Positions 9,101 to 33,070 of a stretch of DNA of 64,000 nucleotides are shown here, piece after piece. Position numbers and translations under genes: made by a program. How positions within the stretch are numbered: the first letter of the stretch is position 1; each line of letters opens with the position of its first letter. Origin of the DNA: Halichondria panicea (Eukaryota > Porifera > Demospongiae > Suberitida > Halichondriidae); contig NC_087384.1 in NCBI RefSeq assembly GCF_963675165.1, positions 2,804,315 to 2,868,314 on the forward strand. The letters run 5' to 3'. Under the pieces are notes generated by a model. That model had not been told where the DNA came from. It did no database searches and saw only the letters and a list, made by a program, of their open reading frames with translations.

Positions 9101-12100
9101 AAACTATGAGCAGCCTGATATCAGGTCAGCGCTAGATGGTGCTGACCACTCCCACCCAGACACTAAAACCTAGGCTAGAAGTATATAGTCTGCAATTAAT
9201 TAGCTAAAGGTCAAAGTAGTCCCAACCCCACCCTTATTTTATTCACAGCCACCTTAACATTTTTGAGGTTAAGCCACCGCCTCCACATTTTGGCACTATT
9301 TAGTGATCCAAGTGTTAGTGACTGTTATAAATTTGCCTTGGACACTGAGGAGCTGGTGTTATTGTCCGTTTCTGCTTCTGTTATTATCTACCTGTACTTA
9401 TCTAAACAAATAATGGCATGTCAAAGGTAATTGCGCTAGTACCCATTTAGGCATGGATTGAAGCCCCGCCCCCGATTCCGGAAAGCAATTAAATATTGGA
9501 GGTGAATATCGTTAGTGATCCTATCAATGTGCGTGGTGTAGTGGGTATCAGTGTAACAGTGCACTAACTGATTCCATTCTCTGTGTGTGTGTACTCTCAT
9601 CTCTGTCAATGAGTGAACTGCATGGGTACTTGAAAGTGGATGCTTTCTTTGCCGTGTATTTATAGAATGTCTTCTCCTAACTATAGGACAACTGGACAGT
9701 TCTCCACGCAGCCAGTAACAATGGACATGATGAGGTGGTGAGGGTCCTCTTAGCAGCCAAGGCTACAGTCAACATGCAGAGCAAGGTCAGTTATGGTTAC
9801 ATGAACCATTTGCACAGCTGGTGTTTGATCCTATCAATGTGCGTGGTGTAGTGGGTACCAGTGTAACAGTGTACTAACTGATTCCATTCTCTGTGTGTGT
9901 ATACTGAGTCCACTTAAGCAAGCAACTTGGACAGCAAATTCTTTGTAGTACCGTACCCTCGCGAAAATACGCCCATCCTTTTCTGCAAGAAGTCTAGGCT
10001 TATTAGGGGACTGGGCGTTTAATCGCGAACGGCAAGTTTTCATTCGAATATACGCCCACTCGCGGCCTCAAATCGAGGTTTACACTTTGCTCTATAATTA
10101 ATTATGACCATTTTTAGTAATACAGTAACATAGTATGAACATTTCATTGACAACAACAATTTCATAAAAACTAATGCATGAGTATGATCAAGGGCGTATA
10201 CAGAGAAGAGGGCATGCAACTCGCCCCATTCTCAGAATCATCCGACTTCGTATTGAGCTATTTTTAGAACTGCCCACAAAAACGCCCACGCGTAACCTTT
10301 GACCGCACAAGGTAAATCAAAGTATTTTTTATATCTGTGCCAGCTAGCTAGCTCGATTGCAGCATAGTAAAACTAGTTCTCAGCAGCAGTATGGCTTGTA
10401 CTAGCAGTGTCAAAGGCAAAGGCAAACCATCCAACAGTTGCAACTCCAAGAAGATGAAACCTAGGTACAATAATCTGTCTTCCTGAGTCTTTGGTACTTC
10501 TTAACAATGCGCCCAGCACTCAACTTCATGCTCGAAGGGGTTGTCTTGGACCTGGCTGGACTAGGACTGGTCATGACACTTCTCTAAAATAATACTGCAC
10601 TGTTAGCTAGCTAGCTAGCTAGGCAGCTCTGATGTACACGCCCATAATTATAACTCCGTAAACAACACCGCCCACTTGTTCACGTCCGTATACTGGATTC
10701 TATTTTTAGCATATCCGGTCTCTGATACGAAGTCGGATTAGTACGTAGGATACATAGTGAGTTGCATGCCCTCTTCTCTGTATACACCCTTGGTATGATT
10801 AAAGCATGACAAGAGAATGAACATGAAGAAGTGGACTCTTGACTCTATTCGTTGCTTGTCACTTGTGTCGATGTCAGATGTAGCAGAAACTTCCCAAAGG
10901 ATGGTAGGTCATACTCCTACAGAGCAGCTATCAGGTACTTTGTTTCAGAAAACCAAGGCAAGGTAACCTGCATGTGTGACAACTTTTTTGGACTTTGTGT
11001 TTTCTTTTCTCTGCATATAGGACTACTTGTTCCCTGCATATACATCTTCAAGGGCAAACAGATCCATACAGAGAAAGTTATATGTCTGATCTTGGTCCAG
11101 CAAGGAGTATAGTCGTACTAGCTACTACCTAAAACTTCCTTTCTTCACTAGTCAACATGTGGCATTTAGCTACTGCGCATGCTCAAACTCTTCATTCTGG
11201 GTGGGCTTATAATCGAGTGAAAATACCCTTGTGCAAGAACTTCGAAGCAAAAGAGGGGATGGGCGTTTATTCAAGATGGGCTTATTTTCGCGAGGGTACG
11301 GTACGTATATCTATCTAGTATTCAATAGTGTGCAGATCGATGTAACTACGTTCTGTTGTATTCATTGTATCGGCACCGTGCTGATACAATGAATACAAAC
11401 CTACATTATATATAACAGTGAACTAGTTGATTCCTTCTCTGTGTGTACTCTCATCTCTGTCAATGAGTGAACCTATAGTACTTGAGAGTGGATACTTTCC
11501 CATGTGGTGTTTTTAAACAGTCTATTATGTCAAACGCCGCTCTAACGCAAATTATTATTATTACTGACCAACCTAAAGCCAATTCTAGTAGTTGATTTTT
11601 ACTTGCATACAATGCCCAGCTACTTAAGAAATTAAAGAGGGAATCCATAATGATAATTTGCAGTGTGATCACAGCCTCTCTTTGTAGTAGGTACACCCGA
11701 AACGATTATATAACTAAAATACACTGCATGCCTTCAAATGAGCTTCTGATGACATACACAACGCTTCCATATGATGCACAGTAAGGTGTGGATACTGCCT
11801 AAGAATCACGTAAGGGAGCTTTGAATAATAGTAACATTTTTCCTGCTGGTAGGCGAAACAAGGATAAAGCAAAACACCGTAAATATGTGCACATACTCTG
11901 TTTATAAGGTTAAAAAAAGGATGTTTTGTTTACACTAGCAAACACTTGTTTCACAACATCTTGTTTATGTACTGCATATACAGTCGGGAGAGACCCCTCT
12001 CTGGTCAGCCAGTTTCGAAGGTCACCTGAAGTGTGTGGAGCTCCTAATCGATGCTGGAGCCAATGTTGATATGCAAGAAGAGGTGAGTGTATCTAGCTGT

Positions 12101-24100: not shown

Positions 24101-27100
24101 GTATAAATTTATATATTGTATCATAATAATTATTATCTACTGGTATTTGTCCAAAGAAATAATGGCAGGTCAAAGGTCATTACGCTAGTACCCATTTTAG
24201 GTATGGATTGAAGCCTCGCTCCCGCTTTCGCAAAGCAATTGAATATTGGAGGCGAATACCGTGTGGTGTTTTTAAACAGAACGCAAATTATTTATTACTG
24301 ACCAACCTAAAGCCAATTCTATAGTAGTTGATTTTTACTTGCATACAATGCCCAGCTACTTAAGAAAGAGGGAATCCATAGTGATAATTTGCAGTGTGAT
24401 CACAGCCTCTCTTTGTAGAAAGTACAGTAGCCATCAATAAAAAGTTCCCGTTCCGTTTTTTAAAACGCACGTTTAAACGATCGCGTAAAAACGCATTTGG
24501 AACGGGTGGTTTAGCTCATTAGTACTAAACGGTAAGAAAACGGAAGCAATTGAAACCGCAAACAAGCTAGCTATAGCAACACTAACAACTAGTTTAGCCC
24601 GCGCGTAGCAGAGAGTAGAGTCAATAGAACTTGAAGAGCAAGACGATGGTTTATAACAAGTATTCTAAGCACAGGATACTTTGCTATCGTAGATTAGGCT
24701 ACAGAGCATATATAATCTCAAAGAAACTACGGGAGGAGGGGATACAAACAAGCAGGAGAGGAGTATCTAAGATGCTGACTCGTTTTGAGGAAACAGGGAC
24801 CATTGGAAGAAGAGAGGGCAGCGGTAGGCCCACCAAAATAACACCAGCAGTGAAAGCAGTTGTAGATGGTCAAATGAGGCTGGATGATGAGACAACAGCT
24901 ATTCAGCTCTATGCTCTACTGCAGTTGAAAGGCTTTAACATCAGTCTGGCCACCATTCTTAGAGCAAGGACGACACTTGAGTGGACCTTTTGAGGCTCGG
25001 CGTACTGCCAGCTCATTCGAGAGGCCAACAAACTGAAGAGGCTCGACTGGGCAAAAGCCAATCTAAATACCAACTTTGAGGACGTAATTTGGTCTGATGA
25101 GACTTCTATTCAACTAGAATCACACAGGAGGCACTGCTGTCGGAAGATAGGAAAAGCACCAAAACCTAAGCCAAGGTTATTAATAGTAGTTTTGTTAATT
25201 TGTGTACATATTAAATTAGTGCATCTAATTAGTGTGTTTTAATTATAATTATTAAAAACATTCACAGAGCAAAACACCCCACAAAGGTTCATGTCTGGGC
25301 AGGCATTAGCTGGCGAGGAAGAACTGGGGTGTGCATCTTTGAGGGTAAAATGAATGCCCCATTGTTTGTGGCCATCCTTGATGCTACCCTAAAGCCGTTT
25401 ATCACGGCAGTTTATCCAGCCAACCACCGATTCATGCAGGATAATGATCCTAAACATACGTCCAGATTAGCTCGACAGTTCATGGAGGAGAATAACATCA
25501 ACTGGTGGAAGACACCTGCCGAAAGCCCCGACTGTAACCCCATTGAAAATCTCTGGCACGAAGCCAAAGAATTCCTAAGACGGGAGATAAAGCCGAGAAC
25601 AAAACAGGAACTTATAGATGGAATCTTGTCCTTTTGGGAGACTGTTACGGTGAACAAGTGTCGCAAATATATAGGACACTTAAGAAAAGTACTGCCAAAG
25701 GTCATTGAAATGAATGGAGCAGCAACTGGCTATACTGATCAAGGACTTTGTGCACTGAAGCTTACCATACTATTGATTTTGTAATGCATACACTCTTAAC
25801 AACACCAATGTTGATAGAGTGAAGAGCTGGTTCACAATAACATAACAATAAGAATAACAAGGTGAAATGTTGGTAGAAGAGTGAGCAAGATATGATAAAC
25901 TTTTAATTATTAGGTGATAATTAGACTATAAATAGAAATTATTATAGCAAGGTGATAATTAGCTATAAATAGAAATAATTATACAATAACAAATGTACAT
26001 ACATGTACATGGGGACTATTCATAAGAAAGGGTCTTTTTGTATGCGCTTCGAATCCGTTTGCATGACTGCTCAATGGAGCTAACGCTCTCTGCCCAAAGG
26101 CCCTCAAAAGTGGCAGGGGCTGCCCAATATGTAGGAAACAGCTCAAAAATTGTCAATTTGAGCTGAAAAACCTCTTCTCTTGGTAAGGCTGGAAGGTCCC
26201 TAGCACCATTCGGGGTACATTGGCGCATAACTTCGTCGCCAAAGAATGAGTGTCTCGCAAGTTTTTGGGCCAAGTTTGTTACCTTGCTCTCTACCTGCAG
26301 TTGGCGATTTTTCCCCAGAATAACAGTGACAGGAACTAGATTGTCCTTCTTTATTACACTAGATGGCAATGCATTGTTAACCGTCTTGCTAGGTCGAAGA
26401 GGCATTGGCTTTGCGCTAGCAGCATCTTGCGATGGTAGTGGTTGGTATTGTTGGTTGGGCATGCCTGAGGTGCTGGGTTGACTCTGAGGTTGATACGGGG
26501 GTTGATACAGGGGTTGACGTACATAGTTGTACATAGAGTGAGATTGGATGGTGCTCTTTAATTGTTCTTGCTGCATTAGCACCATCTGCTCAAGATATTC
26601 GACCCTTTCTTGGAGATCATGGATATTCAACCGTGCCTGTGTAAGGTCAGTTGATTCATAACTGCAGATTGACATGTCTTCACTTCCGGAGTCACCGTCA
26701 AGAGATTTTATCCTGAATTGTTTTGGAAACGGCCTCAGAAATGGGTCAAGCTCAGTGGAAAGAGGGGTGGTAAGATTTGTGAGGTCAATAACAGGAGGAT
26801 CAGTTACCACAAGTATAGAGCCAGTGGGTTCCTGCACCTTGATCTTTTTAGTAGAATTTTTCTTTTTGGAGGGAACTTTTTTTTTCTTTTTTGGTGGTGG
26901 TGAAGCTGATGGTGAAGCTGGTGGTGATGGTGAAGCTGGTGGTGATGGTGAAGCTGATGGTGGTGGTGAAGCTGGTGGTGGTAGTGAAGCTGGTGGTGGT
27001 GGTGTGTCGTTGTCGGCTCCAACGTATTCGAGCTCTTTATGCCTCATCTCATCCTTGGAGCCTAAAATATAAAAAGCCCTATTAATTATCGGAAAATGCA

Positions 27101-30100
27101 AGCAAGATACCAATAAATAATACTTTAGTTTGCGAGCTTAAGTACATAAAATAAATGGTGCTAGGGTGATGCAACAATACTTACCGATAGCAAGGACAAG
27201 GGCTTTAATCAGTTTTCTCCCATACTTCACTGGGTAGCTCTCACCGCACACCACACTCTCTGACTTGCCACACTGAATGTGTTTCTCCTCTACTGTTGTC
27301 ACAGAACCATCACATTCCCACTCAACAAGGTAGAATTTCTCTGTACATGTAGGTTAACAAAGTTTTTAGAAATGCAACAGCACAGTCTGATGCTAGACTA
27401 GACTAGCTATGAACATTACACACACAGCTCACTGACTTTGTTGCTGTTGAAGATCCTTTAAAGCTTTTCTAAGGGCCATTCCAGGTAACAGGAGAGGAAC
27501 ACAATACAAATGAACTAGCTGGACAAAGCAGAAGAAGGTCCACTTGCGCGTTGAATCCTAGCTACATATTTACTATGGATACTGTGTATAGCTAACAAAC
27601 GATAAGAAACCGCTTACTCATCAATTTAGCCCCCGCACTATTAAAACGGAAGCGTTTTGTATAATTCAATGCGTTCGTTTTGCGTTTTTTTGGGCGCGTT
27701 TAAACGCAAACAGTGCGTTTTACGCAAACGGAACGGGAACTTTTTATTGATGAGTACTGTACACCCGAAACGATTATATAACTAAAATACACTGCATGCC
27801 TTCAAATGAGCTTCTGATGACATACACAATGCTTCCATATGATGCACAGTAAGGTGTGGATGAGAGGGTGTATGCGCGCCGTACACCTTTGGGTGACCCA
27901 CGGGTATGCCATGTATACTATGATGCTATAGGTACTCTGGGAGAGGGTGTATGCGCGCCGTACACCATTGGGTGACCCACGGGTATGCCACGTACACTAC
28001 GGTGCTATAGGTACTCTGGGAGAGGACTATGCGCGCTGTACACCATTGGGTGACCCATGGGTATCCCACGTATACTACGGTGCTATAGGTACTCTGGGAG
28101 AGGACTATGCGCGCTGTACACCATTGGGTGACCCATGGGTATCCCACGTATACTACGGTGCTATAGGTACTCTGGGAGAAGGCTATATGCGCGCTGTACA
28201 CCATTGGGTGACCCACGGGTATGCCACGTATACTACGGTGCTATAGGTACTCTGGGAGAGGGGCTATGTGCGCCATACACCATTGGGTGACCCATGGGTA
28301 TGCCATGTATACTATGGTGCTAGCTACACAGCATTACTTGAGTGACCCATAGGCATAATTATGGTGGTAGCTATAGGTTACCCATGGGTATGCGACATAA
28401 GGGGATAGCTATATATGCATACACTTGACCCATATACAGTAGCCCTCATATACAAGTTCCCGTTCCGTACCGTTCAATTTGCGTACAACGGTTCGCGTAG
28501 AAACGGAATGAAAACGGAAGCCAGCTCATTAAAATTTAATACGGTACGGAAATAACCGTTTTAATTCTGAAATAACGTTCGCACGTGTAGCTGCATGATT
28601 TGCTCCGTAGCTAGCTGGCTAGTGTTCCAAGAAATCAAGCTGGTGAACTGTTCTACTAAACAAAGAATCCTCATCCTTCACAAACAGCTACGGAGCAAGT
28701 ACAGAATCCCTAAGAAGCAAGGTCAAGGCGAGCTAGATCTAGTTAGAATAATTACTGACATTTAGTTTGAACATTTATATTTATATTTATAGCACTGTAC
28801 ATGAATTTGTTATTCTTTATTTGACATGATGTTTTAATGATACAGGACATTGTATACGATAGTGTATAATTTATAATGAAGTGTTCAACAAAAGTAATAG
28901 TACAATCAGATCATAATATAATGTAGCTGTATCTAAGATTCCAGACTGAGAGATCCGGTTGACTTGCTACTACCAACTTTCTCATCTTCTTCCAGCCTTG
29001 CATGTAAGTTCTGCAGTATTCCCAGTGCTATTTGTATGCCCCTGGATTACACTAGAGAAGTTAGTACATTTGTAGCTTGCTTAGTACATACAGAATAAAT
29101 AAAAATTATTATTGCTAACTCAGCAAACTCCACCCGTTTTTTCTCCTAGAACGGTGTAGGTAATTACGGTGCGTTTATGAATAATACGCTACCGTTTAGT
29201 TAGCGTTTTCTGACTCCGTAAAAACGGGAACGTTACGTGCAACTGAAACGCAACGGGAACTTTTATATGAGGGCTACTGTATGTTGATGGCATTACTGGA
29301 TGGACATGGATGAATGTTGATACACAAAGAGAGGTGAGTGTATCTTGCTGTACACATCTCAGAGATTGGCTAGTCATAGACCTCACCATGTCCTGGTGAT
29401 GTGATATACCGTATATCGCAACATTTTCGTGGGTTAGCAATCCTACACGGAAATAAAGTCCACTAAAAAAATTGTTCTTTAATTAGGATTATCTGCTATA
29501 ACGTGCAAAGATTTAAAGGTGTGGTTTCCGGTAAGCAGTCATTCCGCGAACATTGTGCAAGGAAATGCTTTTAAAGGCCAATCCACGAAATATAAGTGCC
29601 TTCGTGCTATACGATATACAGGGTGTCATACAGGATTTTGAAGAGAGGGGGGAAATGAGAAAAGTAACCAGAAAAGGTTGCTAAAAAAAAGGTCAACTGT
29701 TAATTCAATACCCAGCTATCGACACTCGTCACAGGGTAGTAAGCAAGAGTTACTTAGTGAGTCCACTTAAGTAAGCAGCAAATTCTTGGTATCTAGTATT
29801 CAATAGTGTGCAGATCGATGTAGCCACGTTCTGTTGTATTCATCGTATCGGCACGGTGTTCTGTTGTAAATAACACCGTGCCGATACAATGAATACAAAC
29901 CTACATTTGATATAACAGTGTACTAGCTGATTCCATTCTCTGTGTGTACTCTATCTCTGTCAATGAGTGAACCTAGTACTTGAGAGTTGATACTTTCCCA
30001 TGTGGTATTTTTAAACCGTCTGTTATGTCAAACGCCGTTTACTAATGCGGAAATAATTATTACTGACCAACCTAAAGCCAATTCTCTGTGTGTATACTCT

Positions 30101-33070
30101 CATCTCTGTCAATGAGTGAACCGAGTACTTGAGAGTGGATACTTTCTGTGCTGTGCTGTGTATTTATAGATTGTCTTCTCCTAACTATAGAACAACATGA
30201 CAGCTCTCCACATAGCCTGTTGGAATGGACATGATGAGGTGGTGACGGTCCTCTTAGCAGCCAAGGCTACAGTCAACTCGCAGACCAAGGTAAGTTACGG
30301 TTACATGAACCATTTGCACTAGTTAGCAATGGTTGGTTAGTGGAAGAGTCACAGGGTAGTAATTAAGCAATAGTTACTTAGTGAGTCCACTTAAGCAAGC
30401 AGCTTGGACAGCAAATTCTATCTATCTAGTATTCAATAGTGTACAGATCGATGTAACCACGTTCTGTTGTATTCATTGTATCCGCACCGTGCTGATACAG
30501 TGAATACAAACCTACATTTGATATAACAGTGTACTAGCTGATTCCATTCTCTGTGTGTACTCTATCTCTGTCAATGAGTGAACCTAGTACTTGAGAGTGG
30601 ATACGTTCCCATGTGGTGTTTTTAAACCATCTGTTACTGTATATCAAACGCCGTTTACTAATGCGGAAATAATTACTACTGACCAACCTAAAGCCAATTC
30701 TCTGTGTGTATACTCTCATCTCTGTCAATGAGTGAACCTATAGTACTTGAGAGTGGATACTTTCTCAGGTGCATTAAGGACTGGGGCCAACATAAAAAAG
30801 ACATTTATAAGAGGCACTTCAACCTGCTGTTGTTTACTGTGTATACCAATCTGTGTAAAACTTTTATGATGACTAGCTTCCATTATCTAAGAAATATTAA
30901 AATGAAGCCCCGCCCACTAATTAATCAGTGGGGTGGTCCTTTTTGTCAAAGCACTATTTCACTTTTCTATTGAGAATGCGGCGTTTAAACACTAAGTCTA
31001 CTAGCTATTGCTGCTGCTCATTATACTTAGTTCTATCTAAGCTAACAACTCACTCTTGCGCTTACCCCTTCTGGTCTTTGCAACAGAGAAATAAGAGAAA
31101 GTTGTTTGATGTAGCAGCCTCATCTTGGATAGTAGGCTTCCCAGGGACACGATCAACAATTTTTTTGACAAAGTAGAAGGATAGATCAGCTAAAGAAGGC
31201 TTATGGAAGTTATCTATTGCCTCACAAGCTTTACTAGAGAGTGTTTTTTAAACACCGCATAAGTCACTTCTCTAAACTAACTGATTTACTGCACAATGAA
31301 TAGGGAGTGGTACGTTGAAGTAATGAATGCGTGGGCGGAAACCATGGCGACCGTGTGGGCGTGTCTTAGAATTTGCAGATTCAGCAATAATTGAAGGTCC
31401 CAGTCCTTAATGCACCGGAGTTCCCATGTGGTGTTTTTAAACAGAACGCAAATTATTTATTACTGACCAACCTAAAGCCAATTCTATAGTAGTTGATTTT
31501 TACTTGCATACAATGCCCAGCTACTTAAGAAAGAGGGAATCCATATAGTGATAATTTGCAGTGTGATCACAGCCTCTCTTTGTAGAAAGTACACCCGAAA
31601 CGATTATATAGCTAAAATACACTGCATGCCTTCAAATGAGCTTCTAATGACATACACAACGCTTCCATATGATGCACAGTAAGGTGTGGATACTCAGCCC
31701 AGGCCTAAAAATCACGTATGGGAGCTTTGAATGATAGTAACATTTTTCCTTCTGGTAGGCGAAACATGGATAAAGCAAAACACCGTAAATATGTGCTCAT
31801 ACTCTGTTTCTACCTCTTCTATGGTTAAAAAAAGGATGTTTTGTTTACACTAGCAAACACTTGTTTCACAACATCTTGTTTATGTACTGCATATACAGTT
31901 GGGAGAGTCCCCTCTCTTGGCGGCCAGTTTCAAAGGTCACCTGAAGTGTGTGGAGCTCCTAATCGATGCTGGAGCCAATGTTGATATGCAAGAAGAGGTG
32001 AGTGTATCTAGCTGTACACATCTCAGAGATTAGCTAGTCATAGACCTCACCATGTCCTGGTGATTATATCGCAACATTTTCGTGGATTTTGTGGGTTAGC
32101 AATCCTACACGACTAAAATTGTTCTTTAATTAGTATAATGTGCAAAGATTTAAAGGCGTGGTTTCCGGTAAGCAGTCATTCCGCGAACATTGTGCAAGGA
32201 AATGCTTTTAAAGGCCAATCCACGAAATATAAGTGCCTCGAAAATTTCATGCTATACGGTATACAGGGTGTCATACAGGATTTTAAAGTAGAGGGGGGAA
32301 ATGAGAAAAGTAACCAGAAAATGTTGCTAAAAAAAGGTTAACTGTTAATTCAATACCCAGCTATGGACACTCAGTCATAATTGAAAGGGGGGGGGGAAAT
32401 GGGGATATCCCCCTTTCCCCCCCCCTGTATGACACCCTGGGTATATGATGTTACTGGTGGTGTATCGTGGGTAACCTTATATAAAAGTTGGTCTGTGAGC
32501 TGGTGTTTGTGTGTGTTCACCTGCTCATCACTTCTCACTTAAAACTCTGTACATACCACTGTATTCTCAAAACCGTTATCTCTGTACATTTGCTTTTAAG
32601 ACTCATGATCCTTACCTATCATTCACATTGCGCTTCTCTGTGAATTATTTATTGTGCCACTGTACGTAGTTTTTGAAAGACAATAGTATGGTGTGAAAGA
32701 ATCAGTGCTGATATTATCACTTCTCACTTAACTCTGTACAGGATGGAACCACAGCGCTGTTTGTAGCTGCTCAGAATGGTCACTTGAGGGTAGTTGAAGT
32801 GTTGATTGCGGCTAAAGCTCAGGTTGACATTCAACAGAAGGTGAGGTTTAATACCACTTTAGTGTTATATTTTCATAAGCATTATTTCTGTACGTTTGCT
32901 TTTTAAGACACATGATCCTTACCCTATCATTCACAGTATACGTGCACTTCTATGCGAATTAGTTATTTCCGATGGTGAGGTGTAATTGCTCATATACCAC
33001 TGTTATATAGTATTGTTATACCTCGGTGCGCATGCGCAAACTATACGGTAGTGTGTTTGTGTGTGTGCAT

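What the first reader, a model, noticed from the sequence alone, without database searches (positions are those of the whole stretch)
24425..27759. Tc1/mariner transposon carrying an intact BEN-domain gene
Exact TA duplication, matching 31-bp inverted ends and a sister empty site define a 3.3-kb element. Besides a DD34E transposase it carries, in antisense, a three-exon 414-residue BEN protein with no breaks, while the transposase has a stop. Tc1/mariner elements normally encode only a transposase. Selection may have kept the BEN protein, either as a DNA-targeting or silencing factor of the element or as a captured host gene. This might help explain any BEN gene expansion in sponges.
Basis: partly seen in the sequence, partly recalled or inferred. 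Interest (0 to 1): 0.88.

Follow-up and report, generated by a model that had tools for sequence, protein, structure and literature searches.

The report
Jumping gene with DNA-binding companion gene
A cut-and-paste jumping gene, probably from a sponge, carries besides its cutting enzyme a second intact gene for a BEN-type DNA-binding protein, and relatives of both genes sit side by side in other copies, so the protein looks like a long-standing part of the element.

Summary
In detail: a TA-flanked 3.34-kb Tc1/mariner (DD34E) element with 37-nt ends, a transposase with one in-frame stop, and an antisense three-exon 414-residue BEN gene. Six paralogous empty sites lie in the window.

BEN is not a one-off. 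In this genome 11 of 13 loci with a sizeable transposase match of this clade also hold BEN sequence; no free-standing intact BEN gene of this kind turned up. Two 4.0-kb copies, 99% alike on different contigs, show the pair moving together. BEN and transposase diverged under similar purifying selection (dN/dS 0.085 and 0.070, one pair of subfamilies). A second transposase clade carries a BEN gene in the other relative orientation. Unexpectedly, a CACTA-type element also carries one.

The ends of BEN-bearing mariner families are packed with the CpG-containing motif AACG, nearly absent from the few other Tc1/mariner families read, which have a different companion gene. Best reading: BEN is an element-encoded end-binding helper or anti-silencing factor, like TNPA or VANC of plant transposons. 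Co-mobility and selection are shown; binding and function are inferred. Ten paper searches showed no such element. A BEN expansion in sponges is not shown, and two-gene mariner elements recur in this genome.

The parts
24423..27761 (.). whole insertion incl. TA duplications (element proper 24425-27759)
24423..24458 (+). left terminal inverted repeat with TA target duplication
27726..27761 (-). right terminal inverted repeat with TA target duplication
24423..24572 (.). left subterminal AACG/CGTT cluster (9 in outer 150 bp; window background mean 0.52, max 5)
27612..27761 (.). right subterminal AACG/CGTT cluster (10 in outer 150 bp)
24646..25175 (+). transposase exon 1 (HTH part, first catalytic D); in-frame TGA at 24991-24993
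25268..25784 (+). transposase exon 2 (DDE_3, DD34E)
27437..27479 (-). BEN gene exon 1 (14 codons + 1 nt)
27185..27340 (-). BEN gene exon 2: ~53-residue N-terminal domain of unknown fold (no convincing PDB match)
26016..27061 (-). BEN gene exon 3: Pro-rich linker, basic stretch, coiled-coil-like stretch (by eye), BEN domain
26040..26321 (-). BEN domain (BEND3-like), approximate borders
31570..31615 (+). closest paralogous empty insertion site (others start at 11672, 15558, 17212, 21102, 22756)
28435..29281 (.). non-autonomous 847-bp element (MITE) with C9-type ends, 0.7 kb downstream

Best explanation
The window holds one copy of a family of two-gene Tc1/mariner (DD34E) transposons. The transposase cuts and pastes at TA. 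The convergent second gene encodes a BEN-domain protein that has descended with the transposase through several subfamilies under purifying selection (shown). Most likely it binds the arrays of AACG (CpG-containing) motifs just inside both ends, through its BEN domain and as an oligomer through the coiled-coil-like stretch. There it helps assemble or license the ends and keeps them free of silencing, so that full elements and the MITEs sharing the ends can move (inferred). Likelihoods: BEN is an integral, selected gene of the element 0.93; it is the AACG binder 0.5; its net effect favours transposition rather than self-silencing 0.4.
For: BEN sequence beside the transposase at 11 of 13 clade loci. 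Two 4.0-kb copies on contigs C9 and C1, 99.2% alike, each TA-flanked with 26-30-nt perfect ends, both with the open 494-codon BEN frame. dN/dS between subfamilies: BEN domain C9/C1a 0.085 (dN 0.145, dS 1.71), transposase C1b/C1a 0.070. Exon 1 and splice phase kept in three subfamilies. BEN identity by profile against BEND3. A second transposase clade (C11 family: 2,714-bp copy with 37/37 ends; a second copy with a 354-codon open transposase frame) also has a BEN gene. AACG clusters at 9 of 10 BEN-family ends and 4 of 4 ends of two MITEs exceed the maximum of 1,191 window background stretches; the two other Tc1/mariner elements with complete ends (L061, L062) have 0-1 per 150 bp. BEND3 and BANP BEN domains select unmethylated CpG DNA (PMC11472053, passages).
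Against: No binding, expression or methylation data. The AACG arrays could be sites of the transposase itself: families with and without the motif also differ in transposase, and only two comparison elements have complete ends. The C17 copy is weak (right end 3 AACG, not above shuffles; left end reached by 37 of 500). The BEN link between the two transposase clades is weak by sequence (hhalign probability 30%) and the orientation differs, so BEN may have been gained twice. BEN evolves faster than the transposase (pN 0.32-0.34 against 0.17-0.18 for window pairs). AlphaFold of the window BEN domain was poor (pLDDT 51). In none of the four most complete copies of the window's clade is the transposase undamaged, so current activity is not shown.
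Confidence: 0.5

Rival explanations
1. The transposase alone binds the AACG arrays; the BEN protein acts on host chromatin away from the ends (general anti-silencing, or cell-state control) and is kept for that.
For: Transposases usually bind their own inverted repeats (general knowledge); AACG presence also tracks the transposase clade.
Against: BEN domains of BEND3/BANP type read CpG DNA (PMC11472053, passages), and the arrays extend past the inverted repeat.
Confidence: 0.22
2. BEN is a self-limiting or host-friendly silencer: bound to the ends it represses the element and its MITEs, lowering host damage.
For: BEND3 is described as associating with heterochromatin and repressing transcription (PMC11472053 introduction); in 3 of the 4 most complete copies BEN is open while the transposase is damaged.
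Against: Too few copies to mean anything (my rough estimate p about 0.1), and two of the three are near identical.
Confidence: 0.15
3. Captured host gene carried passively, without function for the element.
For: No biochemical proof of a function; decayed BEN copies are common.
Against: Low dN/dS across subfamily divergence, like the transposase; BEN genes beside two transposase clades and in a CACTA-type element; no host donor gene found.
Confidence: 0.06
4. Chance neighbourhood or assembly artefact.
For: none found
Against: TA-to-TA limits, six empty sites, two near-identical copies elsewhere, relatives in other sequence sources.
Confidence: 0.01

Closest known systems
TBE and Tec elements of ciliates (Tc1/mariner superfamily, DD34E)
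   Same: Tc1/mariner transposase plus further ORFs, one in reverse orientation; accessory ORFs of TBE under purifying selection (PMC4724952, PMC7325037, passages)
   Different: TBE extra ORFs are a 22-kDa protein of unknown function and a zinc-finger/kinase protein, Tec has a recombinase; no BEN domain is mentioned in the passages I saw
En/Spm (CACTA) TNPA
   Same: second, element-encoded DNA-binding protein for repeated subterminal motifs, required for transposition (PMC2613891, passages); a paper on TnpA demethylation appears in the reference list of PMC10398659 (title only)
   Different: plant CACTA element, unrelated protein and transposase; binding reported there, only inferred here
VANC of VANDAL elements of Arabidopsis
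   Same: element-encoded factor bound to repeated short motifs in noncoding parts, undoing silencing (PMC5735166 abstract; PMC10398659 passages)
   Different: plant element, unrelated protein; anti-silencing shown there, not tested here
TET/JBP-carrying DNA transposons of fungi
   Same: DNA transposons with a chromatin-related companion gene (PMC12730594, start of abstract and passages)
   Different: enzyme that acts on methylcytosine; the word mariner does not occur in the text held
BEND3 / BANP BEN proteins
   Same: BEN domain; closest solved relatives of the profile are BEND3
   Different: host chromatin proteins, not known to me as mobile
BEN genes of bracoviruses
   Same: BEN genes on a viral vector (PMC4574769, search listing only)
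   Different: viral origin; no transposase partner known to me

Membership tests
Tc1/mariner (DD34E) transposon | TA target duplication and terminal inverted repeats | tested here: met
   (empty sites)
Tc1/mariner (DD34E) transposon | DDE transposase with 34 residues between second D and E | tested here: met
   spacing counted by eye
Tc1/mariner (DD34E) transposon | single transposase gene, short element (typical, not defining) | tested here: not met
   second gene, 3.3-4.0 kb
BEN domain | matches curated Pfam model PF10523 above cut-off | tested here: not met
BEN domain | sequence profile relates to solved BEN domains | tested here: met
   BEND3 7v9g E 3e-5, top 5 of 12 rows all BEND3
BEN domain | five-helix BEN fold | tested here: inconclusive
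   AlphaFold pLDDT 51, helical, no fold search run
TNPA-like end-binding helper | repeated subterminal motif in the element | tested here: met
   AACG arrays
TNPA-like end-binding helper | companion protein binds that motif and is needed for transposition | not testable with these tools
   needs EMSA and a transposition assay
VANC-like anti-silencing factor | expression removes DNA methylation from the element | not testable with these tools
   needs methylation data

The most novel reading that the evidence does not exclude
BEN proteins are a recurrent animal counterpart of TNPA/VANC: unrelated DNA transposon superfamilies (Tc1/mariner and CACTA) have each taken up a BEN gene. The BEN protein reads a short motif array at the element ends (CpG-type AACG in the mariner family; CATG/CAAG in the CACTA-type element) and protects or assembles the ends. 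Transposon carriage is then one route by which BEN genes spread in early-branching animals.
Probability: 0.3. Interest if true: 0.9.

Novelty: new variant of a known kind. Interest (0 to 1): 0.72.

Why it matters
Tc1/mariner elements are the textbook one-gene transposons. Here, in what is probably an animal genome, families of them carry a second, selected gene whose protein family (BEN) includes readers of unmethylated CpG DNA, together with a dense CpG motif array at their ends. If the BEN protein works on those ends, this would be an element-encoded end-binding or anti-silencing system like those described for plant transposons, and BEN genes would gain a mobile source. The first test is simple: bind the protein to the ends, with and without methylation.

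Tried and rejected
One-off capture in this copy: rejected (other copies carry BEN). Passive cargo: disfavoured by dN/dS. Other species for gene context: BEN and transposase alignments gave no locus in genome contigs or viral contigs. The search for homologous proteins gave 3, the same 3 and 4 relatives, without context; none of the seven holds a whole BEN domain (sequences). N-terminal domain: no convincing PDB relative (two histone H3 rows, E 0.26 and 1.7). L031 transposase (345-codon frame, no BEN): a putative 26-bp end pair (22/26) at 2321/5727 found with a loose threshold, not confirmed. Structure model too poor for a fold search; none was run. Literature: ten searches showed no report of BEN genes in Tc1/mariner or CACTA elements; subscription papers and Repbase are not covered, so 'not in print' is not claimed. 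'BEN domain' with 'Amphimedon': 0 papers. The review PMC6431247, opened for accessory ORFs, holds neither 'mariner' nor 'BEN domain'. Left out of the 13-locus count: shorter transposase fragments (among them C1:5685, C6:3686, C1:6349, C1:6122, C13:1669, C12:2986), hits of 22-28% identity from other families, and a second transposase remnant inside the C1:8.446 locus, counted with it.
Full report
WHAT IS THERE. The window is C8:2804315-2868314 of a 131-Mb, 39-contig genome. The element runs 24423-27761 with TA on both sides and 37-nt arms, 95% complementary. It sits in one unit of a tandem array; six sister units in the window show the uninterrupted site, and the left flank is 98.4% alike over 504 bp in two of them, so the insertion is probably young. 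The plus strand has a two-exon DD34E transposase with one in-frame TGA (24991-24993); the five other copies C9, C1b, C1a, C12 and C17 have a sense codon there. The minus strand has the 414-residue, three-exon BEN gene, open throughout. The genes converge.

IS IT BEN? Pfam does not call it. A profile of the C-terminal 125-132 residues from five copies hits 12 PDB sequences at E up to 10: the first five, E 3e-5 to 0.07, are all BEND3. The C11-type domain alone hits five PDB sequences, all BEND3, best E 0.01. So the name is right but the family is divergent. The model of the window domain is poor (pLDDT 51) and carries no weight.

IT TRAVELS WITH THE ELEMENT. Own-genome searches with three transposase and four BEN queries (9, 21, 22, 48) give 13 loci with a sizeable transposase match of the wider clade; 11 of them hold BEN sequence too (C8 window, C1:6.748, C1:5.705, C12:2.990, C9:1.640, C4:3.277, C1:8.446, C17:4.120, C11:3.902, C1:8.510, C1:3.884), two do not (C16:4.345; C4:7.237, examined only within 1.5 kb and by the genome search). 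Several of the 11 are decayed or carry only part of BEN. Conversely 18 loci match BEN: 11 with transposase, 2 with an end but no transposase (L045, L046), 1 with subterminal element DNA (L036), 4 BEN fragments only (L028, L044, L047, L050). None of the 7 without transposase is an intact gene. The C9 and C1 copies (4,018 and 4,003 bp) are 99.2% alike with perfect 26-30-nt ends and TA flanks: the pair moved as a unit. They differ by 16 substitutions plus indels; 2 substitutions fall in the 1,482-bp BEN frame.

SELECTION. The BEN domain (C9 against C1a) has dN 0.145, dS 1.71, ratio 0.085; the transposase (C1b against C1a) dN 0.093, dS 1.33, ratio 0.070 (Nei-Gojobori, no confidence limits). The other BEN-domain pairs and the other transposase pairs, the window copy's among them, are saturated at silent sites, so no ratio is given; for window against C9 or C1a the BEN domain has pN 0.32-0.34, the transposase (C1b, C1a) 0.17-0.18, so BEN evolves faster. 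The N-terminal domain (52-54 codons) gives 0.21 (C9/C1a), 0.07 (C9/C12), 0.25 and 0.34 (two window pairs). The BEN tree joins C9 with C1a (support 60); the transposase tree joins C1b with C1a and C12 (95), but the place of the window copy is unsupported (43), so congruence is suggestive only. Transposase damage in the four most complete copies: window stop; C9 frameshift; C1b change at the second catalytic D; C1a three-residue insertion. BEN: open in window, C9, C1b; stops in C1a. For C1a the right end was not found. This imbalance is not significant.

A SECOND CLADE. The C11 family (2,714 bp, 37/37 inverted ends; second copy C1:8509119-8516812 split by a nested insertion, with a 354-codon open transposase frame) also carries a BEN gene, but on the same strand as the transposase. 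In the second copy BEN reads as two open frames of 246 and 119 codons; their joining was not tested. The 2,714-bp copy has stops in the transposase and a shortened first BEN frame. The N-terminal domain resembles exon 2 of the window gene weakly (hhalign probability 30%, E 0.00055 for a single comparison). Relatives of the N-terminal frame exist in other sequence sources, 59-97% identical. Either one old BEN gene was inverted or BEN was gained twice.

THE ENDS. The outer 150 bp of the 10 BEN-family ends tested (W, C9, C17, C11 both ends; C1a left, C12 right) carry 3-13 AACG/CGTT (window background without the two elements: mean 0.52, maximum 5 in 1,191 stretches); 9 of 10 ends and 4 of 4 ends of two MITEs exceed the maximum. 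Against dinucleotide shuffles, which keep the CpG richness, 7 of 10 BEN-family ends are reached in at most 10 of 500, the others in 14, 37 and 285. Among CpG contexts AACG is enriched four-fold, the next 1.7-fold (MITE ends included). Other Tc1/mariner elements here have 0-2 (L058, L060, L061, L062), but only L061 and L062 show complete ends. The putative ends of BEN-less L031 have 0 and 1. BEN domains of BEND3 and BANP select unmethylated CpG motifs (PMC11472053, passages). This is the ground for the mechanism; it does not exclude the transposase as the binder.

CONTROLS THAT SURPRISED. Elements fetched as one-gene controls were two-gene too: L058/L060/L061 (one family, three copies), L059 and L062 have a convergent companion ORF, homologous to each other (E 2e-16 to 2e-5), not BEN. 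For L059 no inverted ends were found, so that its two genes form one element is not shown. So a convergent second gene recurs among Tc1/mariner elements of this genome, and BEN is one kind of it. Five such copies were read; the genome has 96 DDE_3 matches (a lower bound), so how common this is stays open. Also, two of the three Pfam-BEN genes of the genome lie in a 5,584-bp segment repeated at 99.8-99.9% on C11 and C1, ending in CCCTATTA / TAATAGGG, beside a 601-codon ORF with Transposase_21 (tnp2, CACTA) E 8.8e-12; its target duplication was not determined. Its outer 300 bp hold 9 CATG each side and 12 and 18 CAAG/CTTG (0 of 500 shuffles each); CATG is the motif reported for another BEN group (NACC1, PMC11472053). 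The window has a 250-bp stretch with 12 CATG, so CATG density alone is not unique, and this BEN domain had no BEN hit among solved structures, though Pfam calls it.

VERDICT. Integral, selected companion gene: shown as far as sequence can. End-binding helper or anti-silencing role: inferred, about even odds for the binding. Likeness to TNPA or VANC is an analogy, not membership.

Noticed in passing
L063:1084 to L065:3266 (C11:1202683-1208266); same on C1 (L064, L066): 5,584-bp CACTA-type element (Transposase_21 ORF) carrying a Pfam-positive BEN gene on the opposite strand, two copies 99.8-99.9% identical; CATG and CAAG arrays at the ends; a third diverged BEN copy at C15:5247292 (L056).
   Followed up: partly
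L061:707-3185; L058, L060; L059; L062:864-3167: Other Tc1/mariner families with a convergent companion ORF of 274-314 codons (in L059 two overlapping ORFs, with a SHOCT-like C-terminus below the Pfam cut-off), no BEN, no AACG arrays.
   Followed up: partly
window 28435-29281: MITE with C9-type ends; about 20 places in the genome match the C9 end with nearly the same score as this one (18 rows at 98.7-103 bits), which suggests a recent burst.
   Followed up: partly
L031:3422-4456 (C16:4.345 Mb): Open 345-codon transposase frame of the same clade without BEN, apparently beside RasGEF/PDZ-like coding pieces (my reading by eye); domesticated or a low-copy element, unclear.
   Followed up: no
window about 11500-31700: Tandem array of near-identical units (up to 98.4%) around the insertion, by eye ankyrin-repeat-like; the array itself was not studied.
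   Followed up: no
window 27871-28351: Tandem array of a 78-80-bp unit just beyond the right flank of the element.
   Followed up: no
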